64,000 nt of DNA, from the NCBI GenBank assembly GCA_903824665.1, contig CAIJXT010000009.1, positions 62,001-126,000 of the forward strand, given 5' to 3'. Below are positions 11,033 to 18,607 of the stretch, one piece after another; the first letter of the stretch is position 1; each line of letters starts with the position of its first letter. A program made the position numbers and the translations under genes. The stretch is from an uncultured Bacteroidota bacterium. Its GTDB lineage: Bacteria > Bacteroidota > Bacteroidia > Chitinophagales > Chitinophagaceae. Below the pieces are notes generated by a model that did no database searches, was not told the origin of the DNA, and worked only from the letters and a program-made list of their open reading frames with translations.

Positions 11033-11662
11033 CCCACTGGCGCGAGTTTGTAGCACAGCCTTGCGTGCGAGCTAACTCGTGACTCACATAAATTAGCCAG
11101 TTTATAACTGGCCCCACTTGCACCCAGTTTACAGCATCGAGCCCAACCAACAAAACCCACACAACCCAAACCCTGTTTTCACTAACTTTATTACAGAATG
11201 TATAACAGTATGACAAAGCTACTTACATTACTCATTTCCATTACTATATGTCATAACGCCATTGGCCAATCCATCTCCCGCGCCATGCAGGAAAAAGCAT
11301 ACGCTCAGGCAATAAAAGAATTCCTGACAGCCACACACAAACGCGACGCTTCCGTTTTCGACACATTATTGGTAGGCAGGCACCCCGATTTCCCTGCCAT
11401 TTCCTTGCCCGCCCGTATAGGTAACACCACCATCCTGCTGTGCACCACACAACAAGCCGACTCGATCCGGAAGCGAAACGAAAAATTGGCTTTTGTAAAT
11501 ATCGTTGGCACTGTCGCTGCTGATAATTCCCGGTTTCTGCTTGTAACCTTCTACCCCGGCTATGTGCATCAATACGACTGCAAAATTGATCTCAGATACA
11601 ATTCCCGCAACCACACCTATCAATCCGTCTTTGTTGATTTCAAAAACTACGCCTACAAATAA
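11033..11662 (+). repeat. Segmental duplication, copy 1 (about 630 bp)
   Basis: This segment recurs at 13935-14565 in the same orientation with a near-constant offset (2902, then 2903 after one extra A). It holds a 165-bp leader and a complete 154-codon gene. Similarity stops at the stop codon in both copies and begins abruptly at CCCACTGG. The leader contains small inverted repeats such as CCAGTT-TAT-AACTGG. Confidence 0.9.
11198..11662 (+). CDS. Small secreted protein, paralogue 1, function unknown
   Basis: A 154-residue protein with a signal peptide (MTKLLTLLISITICHNAIGQ) starting at the second Met (11210); the ATG at 11198 is only four codons upstream. The predicted cleavage after GQ leaves a mature part of about 130 residues without a recognised domain. 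It is almost the same as the product of 14101-14565: most differences are conservative single changes such as I/V, A/T and R/Q, and the frame is intact in both, suggesting both copies are or were expressed. The last 20 or so residues differ most. Function is unknown. Confidence 0.75.
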   Translation: MYNSMTKLLTLLISITICHNAIGQSISRAMQEKAYAQAIKEFLTATHKRDASVFDTLLVGRHPDFPAISLPARIGNTTILLCTTQQADSIRKRNEKLAFVNIVGTVAADNSRFLLVTFYPGYVHQYDCKIDLRYNSRNHTYQSVFVDFKNYAYK

Positions 11663-13388: not shown

Positions 13389-13578
13389 AAGGAGGCGTAT
13401 TTAATAAGGCGGTTAATTAAATGAATTCCTACTTATGATAGACGTATATTGGATGTTATAGCTTGGATAGCTGCTATATATATTTTCGCATTATAGAACT
13501 ACCCCACTAAGCCTGGGCCACACAAAAATCATATTTTTATAGTGCCCGGTGTAGAAACCTTTGCATCTCTGTAGTTAC

Positions 13579-13937
13579 CGGTCTCCTGACAGGCAGCAAC
13601 AAACAAAAACAACCAATAACAACAAAACACCCTGCTGACAATAGAAAAGAAGCCCAGCCAGTGATGGCACCTTTTGCTGTCGTAGCTGTAGATCCGGATG
13701 CTCCAAAACGCATACAGCCGAACAACCCTTCACAGCCGCCCATTAGCAGCACCACATAAGCAGCAAACCAGTGCCATGCCGCCCCATAGCGCCGAAGGAA
13801 AACAGCGTAGAGCTAACCCTTTGCCCGCGGAGCGATTGGGCAAAGGGCGGCGCTTTTTTGGTACTTTTTTTCGCTGTAGAAAAAAAGTACGAGCGGATGG
13901 GCACATATCACCTGATCAAAACACAATGAAACAACCC
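13579..13937 (+). repeat. Two-hairpin repeat element, copy A
   Basis: First of four related copies (also 16238-16570, 16841-17209, 17240-17523). Shared landmarks in order are a GGTCTCC-type start, GATGGCACCTTTTGCTGT, GCAGCAAACCAGTGCCA, a 10-bp inverted repeat CCCTTTGCCC/GGGCAAAGGG (13817-13847), and a second hairpin starting GTAC and ending GTAC (13861-13890, 11-bp arms). It abuts copy 2 of the duplication. On the minus strand a peptide reading TTAKGAI followed by FLLSAGC is kept across copies. The preceding 13389-13578 shows nothing recognisable. Confidence 0.85.
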
Positions 13938-14565
13938 ACTGGCGCGAGTTTGTAGCACAGCCTTGCGCGCGAGCTAACTCGTGCCTCACATAAATTAGCT
14001 AGTTTATAACTGGCCCCACTTGCACCCAGTTTACAGCATCGAGCCCAACCAACAAAAACCCACACAACCCAAACCCTGTTTTCACTAACTTTATTAAAGA
14101 ATGTATAACAGTATGACAAAGCTCCTTACATTACTCATTTCCATTACTATATGTCATAACGCCATTGGCCAATCCGTCTCCCGCGCCCTGCAGGAAAAAG
14201 CATACACACAGGCACTAAAAGAATTCCTGACAGTCACACACAAACGCGACGCCTCCGTTTTCGACACATTATTGGTAGGCAGGCACCCCGATTTCCCTGC
14301 CATTTCCTTGCCCGCCCGCATAGGTAACACCACCATCCTGCTGTGCACCACACAACAGGCCGACTCAATCCGGAAGCAAAATGAAAAATTGGTTTTTGTA
14401 AATATTGTTGGCACTGTCACAGCAGACGATTCCCAATTTCTGTTTGTCACCTTCTACCCCGGCTACATCCATCAATACGACTGCACCATCGACCTCACCC
14501 GCAACCCACACACCCATGCCTATCAAACCACCAATGTCGATTTCAAAAACTTCGCCTACAGGTAA
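13935..14565 (+). repeat. Segmental duplication, copy 2
   Basis: The second copy of the segment at 11033-11662, same orientation, including leader and gene. It begins exactly where repeat element copy A ends and diverges from copy 1 at the stop codon. Confidence 0.9.
14101..14565 (+). CDS. Small secreted protein, paralogue 2, function unknown
   Basis: A 154-residue protein, a close duplicate of the product at 11198-11662. Signal peptide MTKLLTLLISITICHNAIGQ starts at the second Met (14113). The mature parts share long identical blocks (KRDASVFDTLLVGRHPDFPA and ARIGNTTILLCTTQQADS); changes cluster near the C-terminus (TRNPHTHAYQTTNVDFKNFA here). The frame is intact, so it is not an obvious pseudogene. 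No domain is recognised. It is flanked by a dispersed repeat on the left and a convergent tail-fibre-like gene on the right. Confidence 0.75.
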   Translation: MYNSMTKLLTLLISITICHNAIGQSVSRALQEKAYTQALKEFLTVTHKRDASVFDTLLVGRHPDFPAISLPARIGNTTILLCTTQQADSIRKQNEKLVFVNIVGTVTADDSQFLFVTFYPGYIHQYDCTIDLTRNPHTHAYQTTNVDFKNFAYR

Positions 14566-14698
14566 ACGTCACCCTCCTGAGCATAGCCGTCGTTTCAAAA
14601 AAACGAAGACCTGCCTTTGTTTCAGAATACATCACTGCAGCGGCAAATCTTCGGATTTGAAAAAACGAAGAAAATCAATGCACAAAACCGAGCCACAG

Positions 14699-15868
14699 CT
14701 ATAATTTCACAATAGTTAATCTCGTCGTGCCATTAGTAGACAGTGCTCCGGAATTTGATGATGCGAAATTGAACGTATTCACATTCACAGTACTACCCGA
14801 TGTAATGGGAACAACAATGTTGTATCCGGTCCTGCTGTTTGGCGATTGAGAAGTGCTTCCCGTACCGGTTGGGCCATAATAGGTTACCCCACCTACGGTA
14901 ATAGTCACCCCGAGTGCTGTTGATGTGGAAGAACTACTCACTAAAACCACATTTATAGAATAAATACCTGTCGCACCAGCGGTGTAAGTTGTGCCATTAA
15001 AACTACCTATTGTTGGTGTAGTCACCACGCTACCAAAACTCACCAACACATTGGTAGTAGTCGAAAGCGCCGTTCCTGCATTATGGGTGGCAACCAGATC
15101 GATAGTAGCCGTACTGGCACCACCACCACTACTGGTTGGAGTCACTGTCGACACGCCGGTTACTCTGCCCTTTGTGTCTACCGTCACCACCGGTATCGCA
15201 CTGGCACTCCCATAGGTACCTGCTGCCACGCCCGATGTTGCCAGCGTAGGGTTAGGGTAAGTGCCGGTAAGGTCACCACCTGCCGATCCCGATGGCGTAG
15301 CCGTTGGGGTAGCCCACGTATTATCGCCCCTCAGGAAGGTAGTACTATTAGCCGTACCCGAGCCCAACCGGGCTGCCGCAACAGTGCCCGATGTAATTGC
15401 AGCACCTGCAAGCGCAATGCTCACGTTACCAGCCGCTGTTAGGCGACCTTTGATATCAACTGTGTATGCTGGCACCTGTGTTGCACTTCCATAGCTGCCC
15501 GCCGTCAATCCTCCTTGTGTTACCAAAGTAGGGTTTGGATAGGTACCTGCAAGGTCTCCGCCGGCAGCGCCGGTGGGTGCCGCTCCGCTCAACGAAGTCC
15601 AGGCAGTGCCGTTATAAAAGTAAAATCCCGCAGTACCATCTGTCTGGTATACCAATAGCCCCGTCGCTGGTGTCGAGATAGCCGCACGTTGTGTCGCAGT
15701 CATCCTTGGTACCAGCACACCCTGAGTGGTGCTGCTCACGTCCAGCATTGCCGATGCATCGGCTGTTGCTCCGGTACTATTAACGCCCATTCCCTGAGCT
15801 TTTGCTTTGTTTGTGCCAAAGGCAAATGCCAATACCATTACAAAATAAACTATAGCTACCCTTTTCAT
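14699..15868 (-). CDS. Secreted tail-fibre-like protein with C1q/TNF-like C-terminal domain
   Basis: A 389-residue secreted protein. The ATG at 15868 (MKRVAIVYFVMVLAFAFG) gives a clean signal peptide ending KAQ; the frame stays open for 25 more codons upstream but these look unsuitable. Residues after the signal read GVNSTGATADASAMLDV and GVLVPRMTATQRAAI, common at the N-terminus of Bacteroidota surface proteins. Two GGDLxGTYPNPTL motifs, each followed by TYGSA and VDxKGRxT, resemble phage tail-fibre repeats. The last 135 residues look like a beta-rich C1q/TNF jelly roll (FNGTTYTAGATGIYSINV). Role: probably a surface fibre or adhesin; ligand unknown. Confidence 0.75.
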   Translation of the reverse strand: MKRVAIVYFVMVLAFAFGTNKAKAQGMGVNSTGATADASAMLDVSSTTQGVLVPRMTATQRAAISTPATGLLVYQTDGTAGFYFYNGTAWTSLSGAAPTGAAGGDLAGTYPNPTLVTQGGLTAGSYGSATQVPAYTVDIKGRLTAAGNVSIALAGAAITSGTVAAARLGSGTANSTTFLRGDNTWATPTATPSGSAGGDLTGTYPNPTLATSGVAAGTYGSASAIPVVTVDTKGRVTGVSTVTPTSSGGGASTATIDLVATHNAGTALSTTTNVLVSFGSVVTTPTIGSFNGTTYTAGATGIYSINVVLVSSSSTSTALGVTITVGGVTYYGPTGTGSTSQSPNSRTGYNIVVPITSGSTVNVNTFNFASSNSGALSTNGTTRLTIVKL

Positions 15869-16237
15869 GTCGGTTATTTTTTTAATTATTTTGTATAAAA
15901 AGTACTGATACAAAACAGTACATAAACAATAAATGTAAAACAAACATTCTGGTAAAAAAAATCATTTCTGTCCGGCAAGAAAAGAGCGGATAACCAAATC
16001 AGCCGCCTTACATTGGCGCGTGTCCCTGTTTTCCGTATTCAGCGTCTGCTCACTGCCCGGCCACCCGTTTCCGACGTGCGAAAAATCCCCCTTTTTCCCC
16101 CCACTCTCGCGCACGTGTTTTTCACTCGTATTTAAGCTTGTGCCAATGTTCCTCACTGGCTAAGCCAACAGCCCTCCACCTAAATGTAGTTGCCCCCCGT
16201 TGCTCGGCGTAGACTCTTTCTGCGTCACTGCGGCTCC
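15869..16237. other. Intergenic stretch, no gene recognised
   Basis: The first 90 bases are AT-rich and probably hold the promoter of the divergent tail-fibre-like gene. The rest is richer in GC. Short minus-strand frames run through it, but none has a supported start or a recognised product. Confidence 0.5.
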
Positions 16238-16570
16238 CGGTCTCCCCACTGGCGGCACCAAACGAAAAACAACCAGTAACAACACAACACCCAGCTGATA
16301 AAAGAAACATAGCCCAGCCGATGATGGCACCTTTTGCTGTGGTAGATGTGGATCCGGCAGCACTAAAACAATACCGACGACCAGCCCTTCACAGCCGCCC
16401 ATTAGCAGCACCACACAGGCAGCAAACCAGTGCCATGTAGCCCCATAGCGCCGAAGGAAAACAGCGTAGGGCGACCCCTTTGCCCGCGGAACGATTGGGC
16501 AAAGGGCAGCGCTTTCTTTTGGTACTTTTCTTTTCGCTGTAGAAAAGAAAAGTACGAGCGGATGGGCAGA
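16238..16570 (+). repeat. Two-hairpin repeat element, copy B
   Basis: The same element as copy A, with GATGGCACCTTTTGCTGT at 16323 and GCAGCAAACCAGTGCCA at 16418. The first hairpin (CCCTTTGCCC/GGGCAAAGGG) and a 14-bp second hairpin with TTTTCTTTTC/GAAAAGAAAA arms are present. In this copy the minus-strand peptide frame is shifted relative to copies A, C and D, and the TAG found before it elsewhere is changed to a sense codon. Confidence 0.85.
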
Positions 16571-16840
16571 ACACACTCAGATAAACACCAGTAGTCCGCG
16601 TCTGCAGCGTTTGTAAAATTTCCTTCCTCCGGATGCGCTGAAGCGCCAGGCAGTATCACTCGTTCTTTGTCATTTTGAGCCAGCGCATAGCCCTGTGCGT
16701 AGCCGCGCCGCGAAAAATCTTGCGCCACACCGGGCTTCAGCACAGGGGTATTGGCAAGGATTGTGTGTAGTCCGCTAAACGTAGCGAACAAGAAAATATG
16801 CGTTGGGCATTACTCTCCAATTAAATCAACTTCGGTGCTC
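16571..16840. other. Spacer between repeat copies B and C
   Basis: No gene is recognised. At about 16674 it contains TTGTCATTTTGAG and then GCGAAAAATCTTGCG, resembling the dispersed TTGTCATCCCGAC-type intergenic repeat seen at 18609-18674. Confidence 0.4.
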
Positions 16841-17209
16841 GGTCTCCTGACCGGCGGCAAAAAACTAAAAAACAGTAACACAAAACACCCAGCCTAACTG
16901 CTGATAAAAGAAACAAAGCCCAGCACCTGATGGCACCTTTTGCTGTCGTAGATTTGGATCCGGTAGCATCACAATACCTGCTGATGTATAGCCATGTACC
17001 GCAGTCCATAAGCAGCACCGCATAGGCAGCAAACCAGTGCCACGCAGCCTAATAGCGCCGAAGGACAACAGCGTAGAGCTAACCCTTTGCCCGCGGAGCG
17101 ATTGGGCAAAGGGCGGCGCTTTCTTTTGGTACTTTTCTTTTCGCTGTAGAAAAGAAAAGTACGAGGCGATGGGCAGATACCGCCTGATCAAAACACAATA
17201 AAACAACCC
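16841..17209 (+). repeat. Two-hairpin repeat element, copy C
   Basis: Full-length copy from GGTCTCCTGACC to CTGATCAAAACACAATAAA, matching copy A at both ends. Both hairpins are intact; the second has 14-bp arms. It shares with copy D a middle block (CAATACCTGCTGATGTATAG) that differs from copies A and B, so C and D are sister copies. Confidence 0.85.
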
Positions 17210-17239
17210 TCTTTCGGCCTCACCAAAACATATCAAACA

Positions 17240-17523
17240 ATACCCTGCTGATAAAAGAATCATAGCCAAGCCCATGATGGCACCTTTTGCTGTCGTAGAT
17301 GTGGATACGGTAGCATCACAATACCTGCTGATGTATAGCCATGTACAGCAGTTCATAAGCAGCACCGCATAGGCAGCAAACCAGTGCCATGCAGCCCCAT
17401 AGCGCCGAAGGAAAACAGCGTAGAGCTAACCCTTTGCCCGCGGAGCGATTGGGCAAAGGGCGGCGTTTTCTTTTGGTACTTTTCTTTTCGCTGTAGAAAA
17501 GAAAAGTACGAGCGGATGGGCAG
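17240..17523 (+). repeat. Two-hairpin repeat element, copy D
   Basis: Nearest copy to the HTH gene. It lacks the GGTCTCC-type start and begins at CCCTGCTGATAAAAG, but keeps the middle block of copy C and both hairpins. It ends in AGCGGATGGGCAG about 200 bases before the HTH protein start. Confidence 0.85.
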
Positions 17524-17614
17524 AAAACACCCCTGTTTGCCAAACGAAAATTTACCCTAACCAAAAAAAGTGCTTTTTACCCCAAAACCCGCACCCACAG
17601 CGAAAAGAACTTTT

Positions 17615-17663
17615 TATCATATCGCGTATACGTCTTATGATATGCAGCTGGCTGCATATCATA
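17615..17663. promoter_or_regulatory. Palindromic operator-like sequence upstream of the HTH gene
   Basis: A perfect inverted repeat with 13-bp arms (17636-17648 and 17651-17663) and a 2-base centre, core ATATGCAGC-TG-GCTGCATAT. The octamer TATCATAT occurs at 17615 and again at 17657, and its near inverse TATGATAT at 17636. It is 66 bases before the ATG of a predicted DNA-binding protein, so autoregulation or element recognition is possible; this is inference. Confidence 0.55.
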
Positions 17664-17728: not shown

Positions 17729-18607
17729 ATGAATACCGAAAAAAAGCAGCAAGCCCGCAATCTCTATTTCCAGACCGGTCTCAACAAAACCCAGATTGCC
17801 GCCATACTAGAGATCAGCCGGCGCAGCCTCTCCTACTGGGTCAGAGAAGGCGACTGGGACCGCCTCAAAAAATCAGCAGAGCACCTGCCGGCTATATTGG
17901 TAGAGAACTGTTACCACATCTTCGGCAATCTTACAGAGCGATACCTGTCAGAGCGGCGAGTCACAGACCCGGTCAAACCCGTTGAGATCGATGCGCTCTA
18001 CAAACTCACCCGCACCATCAAGAACCTTAAAAGCCGGGCCGCGCTCAACGAATCCATCGAGCTATGCGGCCACTTTATGGATATGCTCCATGCAAAGAAC
18101 CCCGAGCTTGCGCAAGCTGTCATGCCCTACCTCGATGAGTACATGACCTCCCGTGCCAACATCAACCGGGACACCCTCCTCCCAGCCCACTTCACAGGCC
18201 TCTCCGGCACCATCCCCTTCCCCGACCCCGACAGAACCGAAACGCTGATCGACCATCGCGAGGCATTCTTCTCCGACCCCGAAACCGTAGAAACCTACGA
18301 GCGCTGGGGCATTCCCTTCCCCTCCGAAGAAGAGATCAGCACCCTCCCGGGCACTCCTAAACAACCATCAGAGACTGACTCCATCCACAACGAAAACGAA
18401 CCGGATGAAACCCAAACTACTGGTCCAGAGGCGACAACTCCTGCTTCCGCTACCAACGCCTTCAGTGGGAAGCAAGTGCGCAAAAACTGCGCAAAAAGTA
18501 AAGGCAGAAAAATTCGTAAACAACAGATAATCAACGCATACCGCTACAAAACAAACAAACACAAAAAACCAAACAAAATTGCGCAAAACCCTGAAAACCA
18601 CTATTAA
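17729..18607 (+). CDS. Terminase-small-subunit-like HTH DNA-binding protein
   Basis: A 292-residue protein starting at the ATG 17729 (MNTEKKQQARNLYFQTGLNK); the frame is open further upstream but runs through palindromic DNA with unlikely composition. Residues 5-45 form a helix-turn-helix of the phage terminase gpP/DUF1804 kind: LYFQTGLNKTQIAAILEIS, then RRSLSYWVREGDW. Residues 50-150 are helical (NLTERYLSERR, ALYKLTRTIKNLKSRAALN). The tail from about 190 is Pro/Thr/Glu-rich and ends very basic (KNCAKSKGRKIRKQQ). No large terminase subunit or capsid gene is near, so it is probably a stand-alone DNA-binding protein. Palindromes and three repeat copies lie upstream. Confidence 0.75.
   Translation: MNTEKKQQARNLYFQTGLNKTQIAAILEISRRSLSYWVREGDWDRLKKSAEHLPAILVENCYHIFGNLTERYLSERRVTDPVKPVEIDALYKLTRTIKNLKSRAALNESIELCGHFMDMLHAKNPELAQAVMPYLDEYMTSRANINRDTLLPAHFTGLSGTIPFPDPDRTETLIDHREAFFSDPETVETYERWGIPFPSEEEISTLPGTPKQPSETDSIHNENEPDETQTTGPEATTPASATNAFSGKQVRKNCAKSKGRKIRKQQIINAYRYKTNKHKKPNKIAQNPENHY

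What the first reader, a model, noticed from the sequence alone, without database searches (positions are those of the whole stretch)
13579..17523. Four copies of a repeat element with two strong hairpins
Copies at 13579-13937, 16238-16570, 16841-17209 and 17240-17523 share the same order of blocks, a 10-bp CCCTTTGCCC inverted repeat and a second hairpin with GTAC ends and up to 14-bp arms. Three lie in a row before an HTH gene; one abuts a duplicated segment. C and D share a middle block not in A and B. Compensatory differences in the second hairpin (T-only in A, TTTTCTTTTC in B-D) suggest the structure, not just the sequence, is kept. It may be a non-autonomous mobile or RNA-processing element.
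Basis: seen in the sequence. Interest (0 to 1): 0.6.

Follow-up and report, generated by a model that had tools for sequence, protein, structure and literature searches.

The report
Scattered repeats folding into triple helix
The four copies belong to a family of scattered non-coding repeats whose last part looks built to fold into a knotted three-stranded helix; the same folding plan turns up in distant bacteria, so it probably does something useful that is not yet known.

Summary
Confirmed, and much larger than four copies. The own genome (named hits point to Flavipsychrobacter/Taibaiella-like Chitinophagaceae MAGs) gives 29 DNA matches; 29 of 35 congeneric genomes match. The element is about 290 nt, with a long-range helix, the CCCTTTGCCC hairpin and the GTAC hairpin. 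Covariation shows more than hairpins. The pyrimidine tract before the GTAC hairpin matches the hairpin's purine arm in parallel, as a Py.Pu-Py triple helix requires. The stretch before that tract pairs with the hairpin loop, making an H-type pseudoknot. The same module, with many different loop/partner sequences, occurs in 43 of 298 genomes of the order and in Caballeronia, Paraburkholderia, Variovorax, Pseudoalteromonas and Ilyobacter. At shared sites in Paraburkholderia it diverges 1.1% against 24% around it. Prior art exists: "class IV" intrastrand triplexes in bacteria (PMC4666352, parts read); that paper characterises the G/C-rich BoxC motif, and I saw no description of this family in it. 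Best reading: a dispersed, probably mobile element with a 3' triple-helix pseudoknot, somewhat more likely acting as RNA than as DNA. Neither mobiliser nor function was found.

The parts
13578..13907 (+). Copy A of the element (5' CCGGTCTCC block to tail)
13817..13826 (+). Copy A hairpin 1 (H1), 5' arm CCCTTTGCCC
13838..13847 (+). Copy A H1, 3' arm
13861..13872 (+). Copy A hairpin 2 (H2), 5' pyrimidine arm, T-only
13879..13890 (+). Copy A H2, 3' purine arm, A-only
16237..16570 (+). Copy B of the element
16476..16506 (+). Copy B H1 (arms 16476-16485 and 16497-16506)
16522..16555 (+). Copy B H2 (arms 16522-16535 and 16542-16555)
16840..17177 (+). Copy C of the element (5' block to H2 tail; a further shared tail runs to about 17209)
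17083..17113 (+). Copy C H1 (arms 17083-17092 and 17104-17113)
17129..17162 (+). Copy C H2 (arms 17129-17142 and 17149-17162)
17240..17524 (+). Copy D of the element (5' block missing)
17277..17294 (+). Copy D long-range helix P1, 5' side (ATGGCAC 17277-17283 and TTTGCTGTC 17286-17294)
   Evidence: covarying pairs 43-158, 44-157, 54-146, 56-144; read by eye in copy D
17372..17390 (+). Copy D P1, 3' side (GGCAGCAAA 17372-17380 and GTGCCAT 17384-17390)
   Evidence: as above
17430..17460 (+). Copy D H1 (arms 17430-17439 and 17451-17460; loop region GCGGAGC nearly invariant across A1)
17461..17464 (+). Copy D S1a (CGGC), pseudoknot partner of the H2 loop
17466..17474 (+). Copy D tract 1 (TTTTCTTTT), proposed third (Hoogsteen) strand, parallel to the purine arm
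17476..17489 (+). Copy D H2, 5' pyrimidine arm (GTACTTTTCTTTTC)
17490..17493 (+). Copy D S1b (GCTG) in the H2 loop
17496..17509 (+). Copy D H2, 3' purine arm (GAAAAGAAAAGTAC)

Best explanation
The four copies are members of a dispersed, non-coding element of about 290 nt. SHOWN by covariation: a long-range helix (P1), hairpin H1, hairpin H2, a pyrimidine tract that matches H2's purine arm in parallel register, and a short helix S1 between the bases before that tract and the H2 loop. INFERRED from these: the 3' end folds as an H-type pseudoknot whose first loop lies in the major groove of the A-rich stem as a U.A-U / C+.G-C triple helix, the strand order known from telomerase RNA and SAM-II (recalled). 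INFERRED: the fold works in a transcript, where it caps the 3' end of the element RNA against 3'-to-5' decay or serves as the handle for a binding protein, while the 5' domain, which differs between lineages, does the specific job. INFERRED: copies spread as a non-autonomous mobile element using an enzyme not identified here.
For: Structure: 20 of 30 pairs with two-sided changes in 58 copies; A2: 92.1% of cells paired, 141 two-sided cells against 49 shuffled, covariation 0.303 against 0.116, H2 99.3% paired. Triple strand: parallel column couplings 249-306, 252-307, 253-308 beside antiparallel 269-306, 268-307, 267-308; of 98 unique genus modules 84 could be parsed, 47 of them with an asymmetric purine arm: 42 fit parallel better, 2 antiparallel, 3 tie, 25 fit parallel fully, 0 antiparallel fully; 32 modules from other families and phyla: 23 parallel only, 9 symmetric, 0 antiparallel (tract ends set by hand). 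Pseudoknot: 37 of 41 genus sequences 4-of-4; 31 of 43 wider modules with at least 4 perfect Watson-Crick pairs, loops shuffled among sequences mean 10.5, maximum 20 of 2000 shuffles. Spread: 29 of 35 in the genus, 43 of 298 in the order, 11 of 395 in the phylum, plus Betaproteobacteria, Gammaproteobacteria and Fusobacteriota. Constraint: module 19 of 1800 compared positions differ (1.1%) against 2839 of 11847 (24%) for the rest of element plus flanks at four shared sites. RNA rather than DNA: G-T 40 against A-C 17 among non-Watson-Crick cells on the element strand; Rfam RF02421, an RT-PCR-detected Burkholderia sRNA, matches from the last 10 or so bases of H2 onward in Caballeronia on the same strand (PMC3521395, passages).
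Against: No transcript of this element was seen; RF02421 covers only the 3' tail and was not tied to an element in its own genome. The G-T excess is modest and copies are related. The reverse strand also folds (z -6.5 for copy D). 12 of 43 wider modules lack a 4-bp Watson-Crick S1, and L288 and L303 (family f3) have loops too short for it. No triplex was measured. Reverse transcriptase (RVT_1) is seen in only 5 of 14 element-bearing genomes, TnpB in 1 of 14, Y1 transposase in 12 of 14 but not in the own genome: no mobiliser fits. The Paraburkholderia gap is not a clean empty site. The 1.1% divergence could reflect gene conversion between copies rather than selection at each site.
Confidence: 0.55

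Rival explanations
1. The fold acts in DNA. It is an A/T-rich, pyrimidine-type (class IV) intrastrand triplex repeat, like the BoxC/PIT repeats of E. coli: when single-stranded, during replication, repair or transfer, the strand folds back twice and either stalls the fork and raises local rearrangement or is recognised by a single-strand nuclease such as a HUH enzyme.
For: Strand order Y-Y-R, stems of 7-12 and loops of about 5-6 match the class IV definition (PMC4666352). BoxC motifs, too, are intergenic, vary between strains and sit as inverted pairs at some sites (Table 1 and text); elements here sit as head-to-head pairs in Paraburkholderia. The H2 stretch is broken by an IS5-type insertion in one strain and broken in both copies of L346, as expected of an unstable site. 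12 of 14 element-bearing genomes have a Y1 (HUH) transposase.
Against: The own genome, with over 20 copies, and G557 have no Y1 match. C+.G-C triplets need acid pH in DNA. An S1 pseudoknot and a roughly 290-nt fixed-length structured body are not part of that class. Conservation of 1.1% against 24% is unexpected for a mere instability site. The G-T over A-C excess leans to RNA, weakly.
Confidence: 0.3
2. A cis-acting leader, terminator or 3'-UTR stabiliser of the neighbouring genes, for instance of the HTH gene.
For: In the own genome 8 of the 11 HTH copies of 82-100% identity have an H2-bearing repeat upstream on the same strand.
Against: In 55 congeneric copies the next ORF downstream is on the same strand 21 times and opposite 19 times, upstream 22 and 14 (crude ORF calls). 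In Paraburkholderia one pair lies between converging, one between diverging and one between co-directional genes. Most HTH homologues in other congeners have no adjacent element in the coordinates. No U run follows H2.
Confidence: 0.1
3. A recently amplified repeat with no selected fold; the stems are inherited from one palindromic ancestor.
For: Copies C and D are 93% identical and adjacent.
Against: Compensatory changes in H1, H2, P1, S1 and the third strand across species and phyla; 61% mean column identity with H2 99.3% paired.
Confidence: 0.03

Closest known systems
Intrastrand triplex repeats of bacteria: BoxC / PIT / TM_ECO (Holder et al. 2015, PMC4666352; abstract, text parts 2-3, sections 15, 16, first part of 20, and passages read)
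   Same: Single-strand triplex potential, short loops, intergenic, high copy, strain-variable, sometimes inverted pairs. The strand order here is their class IV.
   Different: BoxC is a G/C-rich class II motif of about 36 nt; here the motif is A/T-rich class IV, sits at the 3' end of a roughly 290-nt structured element, has a covarying pseudoknot and a second hairpin, and occurs in Bacteroidota, Proteobacteria and a fusobacterium. The words pseudoknot, covariation and Burkholderia do not occur in that paper's text.
Triple-helix pseudoknot RNAs (telomerase RNA, SAM-II; recalled; SAM-V seen in a listing)
   Same: Order pyrimidine loop 1, pyrimidine 5' arm, purine 3' arm, with an S1 helix formed by the hairpin loop.
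   Different: No sequence relation shown; no ligand or template; many copies per genome.
ENE triple helices in transposon RNAs (PMC12501189; abstract and start of introduction seen)
   Same: A triple helix near the 3' end of a mobile element's RNA, proposed to protect it.
   Different: Eukaryotic, uses a poly(A) tail; here the purine strand is the hairpin's own arm.
Rfam RF02421 Bp1_684 (Khoo et al. 2012, PMC3521395; passages seen)
   Same: Matches Caballeronia copies from the end of H2 onward at 49.5 bits (cut-off 44) and 38 bits (below it); the paper reports it RT-PCR-detected and, by Infernal search, in several phyla.
   Different: Covers only the 3' tail; no triplex, pseudoknot or repeat family described in the passages seen; no match in the window.
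REP / REPIN elements with RAYT transposases (recalled; listings)
   Same: Dispersed intergenic palindromes, often in inverted pairs.
   Different: REPs are 20-40 bp; these are about 290 nt with a pseudoknot; no Y1 transposase in the own genome.

Membership tests
Class IV intrastrand triplex motif (PMC4666352) | Order 5' Hoogsteen pyrimidine strand, pyrimidine strand, purine strand 3' | tested here: met
Class IV intrastrand triplex motif (PMC4666352) | Stems 6-15 nt, loops 1-6 nt | tested here: met
   read on the modules listed; most have stems of 7-12 and loops of about 5-6, a few have longer or shorter H2 loops
Class IV intrastrand triplex motif (PMC4666352) | Triplex forms in vitro (CD, NMR) | not testable with these tools
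   needs bench work
BoxC / PIT / TM_ECO | Consensus CCCTCNCCC N3-6 GGGNGAGGG N3 GGGNGAGGG | tested here: not met
   the tracts are T-rich/A-rich
REP/RAYT | RAYT-type Y1 transposase in the same genome | tested here: not met
   PF01797: 0 matches in the own genome; 12 of 14 element-bearing genomes do have one
REP/RAYT | 20-40 bp palindrome with GTAG/GGAG tag | not tested
   the length differs; the tag was not tested
Stand-alone omega RNA of TnpB | TnpB in the genome | tested here: not met
   PF07282 in 1 of 14 genomes
Stand-alone omega RNA of IscB | IscB in the genome | tested here: inconclusive
   PF14239 0 of 14, but the control genomes did not ring either
Retroelement (RT-mobilised) | Reverse transcriptase in the genome | tested here: not met
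   RVT_1 in 5 of 14 genomes, not in the own one
MITE | Terminal inverted repeats and target-site duplication | tested here: inconclusive
   no terminal inverted repeat seen by eye in the alignments; no clean empty site found
Triple-helix pseudoknot RNA (works like) | S1 between upstream strand and hairpin loop plus loop-1 triple strand | tested here: met
   by covariation only:
Rfam families | Match above a gathering score in the window | tested here: not met
   only a tRNA in the window

The most novel reading that the evidence does not exclude
A previously undescribed family of bacterial RNAs, encoded by dispersed mobile-like elements in at least three phyla, whose transcripts end in a telomerase-like triple-helix pseudoknot under strong structural selection; this would be a bacterial parallel of the triple-helix caps of eukaryotic transposon RNAs.
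Probability: 0.35. Interest if true: 0.9.

Novelty: new variant of a known kind. Interest (0 to 1): 0.72.

Why it matters
Triple helices in bacterial repeats have been proposed from single sequences. Here three strands and a pseudoknot covary, so selection on a three-stranded fold can be tested directly, and it recurs in Bacteroidota, Proteobacteria and a fusobacterium with free choice of sequence. If it is RNA, a large non-coding RNA family with a triple-helix 3' end has been overlooked because it looks like low-complexity intergenic repeats. If it is DNA, it gives the intrastrand-triplex idea its first covariation evidence that I know of. Either way it suggests a structure-specific partner to look for.

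Tried and rejected
Rfam on the window and the copies gave nothing usable: one tRNA and chance-level matches. BTnc060 matches L290 weakly, antisense to the element and far below its cut-off (43.5 of 228.9 bits), and was not pursued.

The HTH gene as the element's partner was followed and set aside as general explanation: strong in the own genome, rare elsewhere. An integron-like array was considered for the G231 cluster (15 copies on one strand in about 57 kb); genes between run both ways and I saw no attC-like order, so it was dropped, by eye only. Mobilisers: Y1, TnpB, RVT_1 and RRXRR searched, none fits; IS110 was not searched. Literature: ten searches; only the last found the intrastrand-triplex paper. 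'Not described' rests on these ten searches of an open-access library and on no wider search.

Limits: overlapping ORFs of 110 aa or more exist in 10 of 17 own copies and no coding test was run. My first cross-phylum triplex script mis-read the C of S1a: it gave 19 parallel, 7 both, 4 neither, 1 antiparallel, 2 unscored of 33; one search repeats it with tract ends set by hand on 32 (L315 dropped, no C or G). In one search, 15 modules had no readable tract 1 and 14 had no readable arm and were dropped. A1 holds 58 of the 101 copies listed, chosen as nearly full length. The phylum search scored few candidates per genome and undercounts. BLAST with one 103-base query found nothing in E. coli, and none was found in named phages with two queries. 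Of 8 viral contigs with the core string, 5 show the module or a broken one (L343, L344, L346, L347, L348) and 3 do not.
Full report
Observation. In the own genome the DNA of copy D finds 29 places. With the 131-base 3' part, 20 of 40 relatives ring; all 20 are among the 25 genomes of the genus and none among 15 from other families of the order. With a congeneric copy, 29 of 35 genus genomes ring. A pattern scan of named genomes finds 51 stretches, all in Bacteroidota MAGs titled Flavipsychrobacter, Taibaiella, Chitinophagaceae, Sphingobacteriales or Bacteroidetes.

Anatomy. In 58 nearly full-length copies (A1) the distance from the ATGGCGCC block to the ACAGCG block is about 133-141 nt where measured, although the stretch between varies. 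RNAalifold keeps a long-range helix P1, H1 and H2; 20 of 30 pairs have two-sided changes. On the 3' module (A2, 41 sequences) 92.1% of cells pair, with 141 two-sided cells against 49 in shuffles. Two hairpin subtypes occur in the own genome and always go together.

Triple strand. A column-coupling scan shows that the pyrimidine tract before H2 co-varies with the H2 purine arm in parallel order (249-306, 252-307, 253-308), while the H2 arms couple antiparallel. A tract T5CT3 goes with an arm A5GA3, and T3CT5 with A3GA5; T-only goes with A-only (copy A). Watson-Crick pairing of the tract would need the opposite order. Of 98 unique modules, 47 are asymmetric and readable: 42 favour parallel, 2 antiparallel, 3 tie; 25 fit parallel in full and none antiparallel in full. 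The five exceptions have all-pyrimidine basal stretches, which my parser includes in the tract; that is my reading. In 32 modules from other families, other phyla and two viral contigs, 23 are parallel only, 9 symmetric and none antiparallel (tract ends set by hand).

Pseudoknot. The four bases before the tract are complementary to the H2 loop in 37 of 41 genus sequences, allowing G-T, in classes TCGC/GCGA, CGGC/GCTG, CAGC/GCTG, TTTC/GAAA, CGGG/CCTG and CGGT/GCTG. In 43 wider modules 31 have at least four perfect pairs, against a mean of 10.5 and a maximum of 20 when loops are shuffled; 16 different partner sequences occur. Two f3 modules with tiny loops lack it. Together these give the H-type pseudoknot with a loop-1 triple helix.

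Distribution. A covariance model of the 3' module (R1) rings in 43 of 298 genomes of the order, 27 of 141 genera, and in 11 of 395 of the phylum, 9 of 171 genera (capped). BLAST of one module finds 5 plasmid records: four Caballeronia and Ilyobacter polytropus. With the Caballeronia module, 17 records and at least 333 places ring: Paraburkholderia 9, Caballeronia 6, Variovorax 1, Ilyobacter 1. The Ilyobacter module adds two Pseudoalteromonas records. The modules I read have the tract and arm in register and a matching S1, except that the Caballeronia grimmiae hit (L331) shows a broken H2. 'At least three phyla' means Bacteroidota, Pseudomonadota and Fusobacteriota.

Evolution. Within a genome, copies become unlike one another just 3' of H2 and a few hundred bases upstream (groups G199, G178, G128 and G231 read; the middle of that output was cut, and the two G026 copies stay alike beyond the element). 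The 5' domain differs between lineages. At four shared Paraburkholderia sites (19 sequences from five replicons) the 50-column module differs at 19 of 1800 compared positions, the rest at 2839 of 11847. Elements there form head-to-head pairs. One site occupied in three replicons is vacant in P. phymatum, with ragged edges.

Strand and expression. On the element strand G-T cells outnumber A-C 40 to 17, a modest sign for RNA. Rfam RF02421 matches the 3' tail in Caballeronia, and its founding paper reports RT-PCR detection (passages). No expression data were available for this genome.

Partners. Y1 transposase: 12 of 14 genomes, absent in the own and in G557. TnpB: 1 of 14. RVT_1: 5 of 14, one of them below the curated cut-off. 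RRXRR: 0 of 14 with a silent control. So neither a reverse transcriptase nor TnpB is the resident mobiliser, and Y1 is not required to be present now.

Context. In the genus, neighbouring gene direction is not fixed. In the own genome the element sits upstream of a multicopy HTH gene in 8 of 11 closely related copies, which looks like joint amplification of the two rather than the element's general role.

Known and new. Class IV intrastrand triplexes are a defined category (PMC4666352). The described BoxC family differs in class, composition, size and lack of a described pseudoknot. I therefore rate this a new variant of a known kind, with the RNA reading as the bolder case.

Noticed in passing
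17729-18607 (+): HTH gene (292 aa; Pfam Terminase_5 E 7e-6, PHROG 4151 DNA-binding protein E 1e-16) is a multicopy family: 20 matches in the own genome, 11 of them 82-100% identical; the shared unit runs from about -154 to just past the stop codon.
   Followed up: partly
17637-17662: Perfect 12-bp inverted repeat ATGATATGCAGC-TG-GCTGCATATCAT upstream of the HTH gene, largely kept in other copies; a possible operator.
   Followed up: no
16840-16856 and similar stretches at 13578 and 16237: CGGTCTCCTGACCGG hairpin block at the element's 5' side, in several own copies preceded by a GTAGTC/GACTAC hairpin block; these look like separate repeat modules.
   Followed up: partly
L042 4068-4310, L044 15-253: A separate roughly 68-nt repeat (TTTGTCATGTTGATCAAGCGCAT...) alternates with solitary H2 hairpins in tandem before HTH genes.
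   Followed up: no
3' end of the HTH gene, about 18477-18590; L019, L022: GTGCGCAA..TGCGCAA motifs with a TGATAATCA-like centre end HTH copies and flank two solitary element remnants.
   Followed up: no
   Followed up: partly
L336 10286-11778; L346: Elements split inside the tract/hairpin stretch, once with an IS5-family transposase between the pieces; both L346 copies are broken in H2. The hairpin may be an insertion hot spot.
   Followed up: no
11033-11662 and 13935-14565: Duplicated segment with a 154-aa ORF, 97% identical over its first 300-nt block, flanking a 532-aa ORF on the other strand.
   Followed up: no
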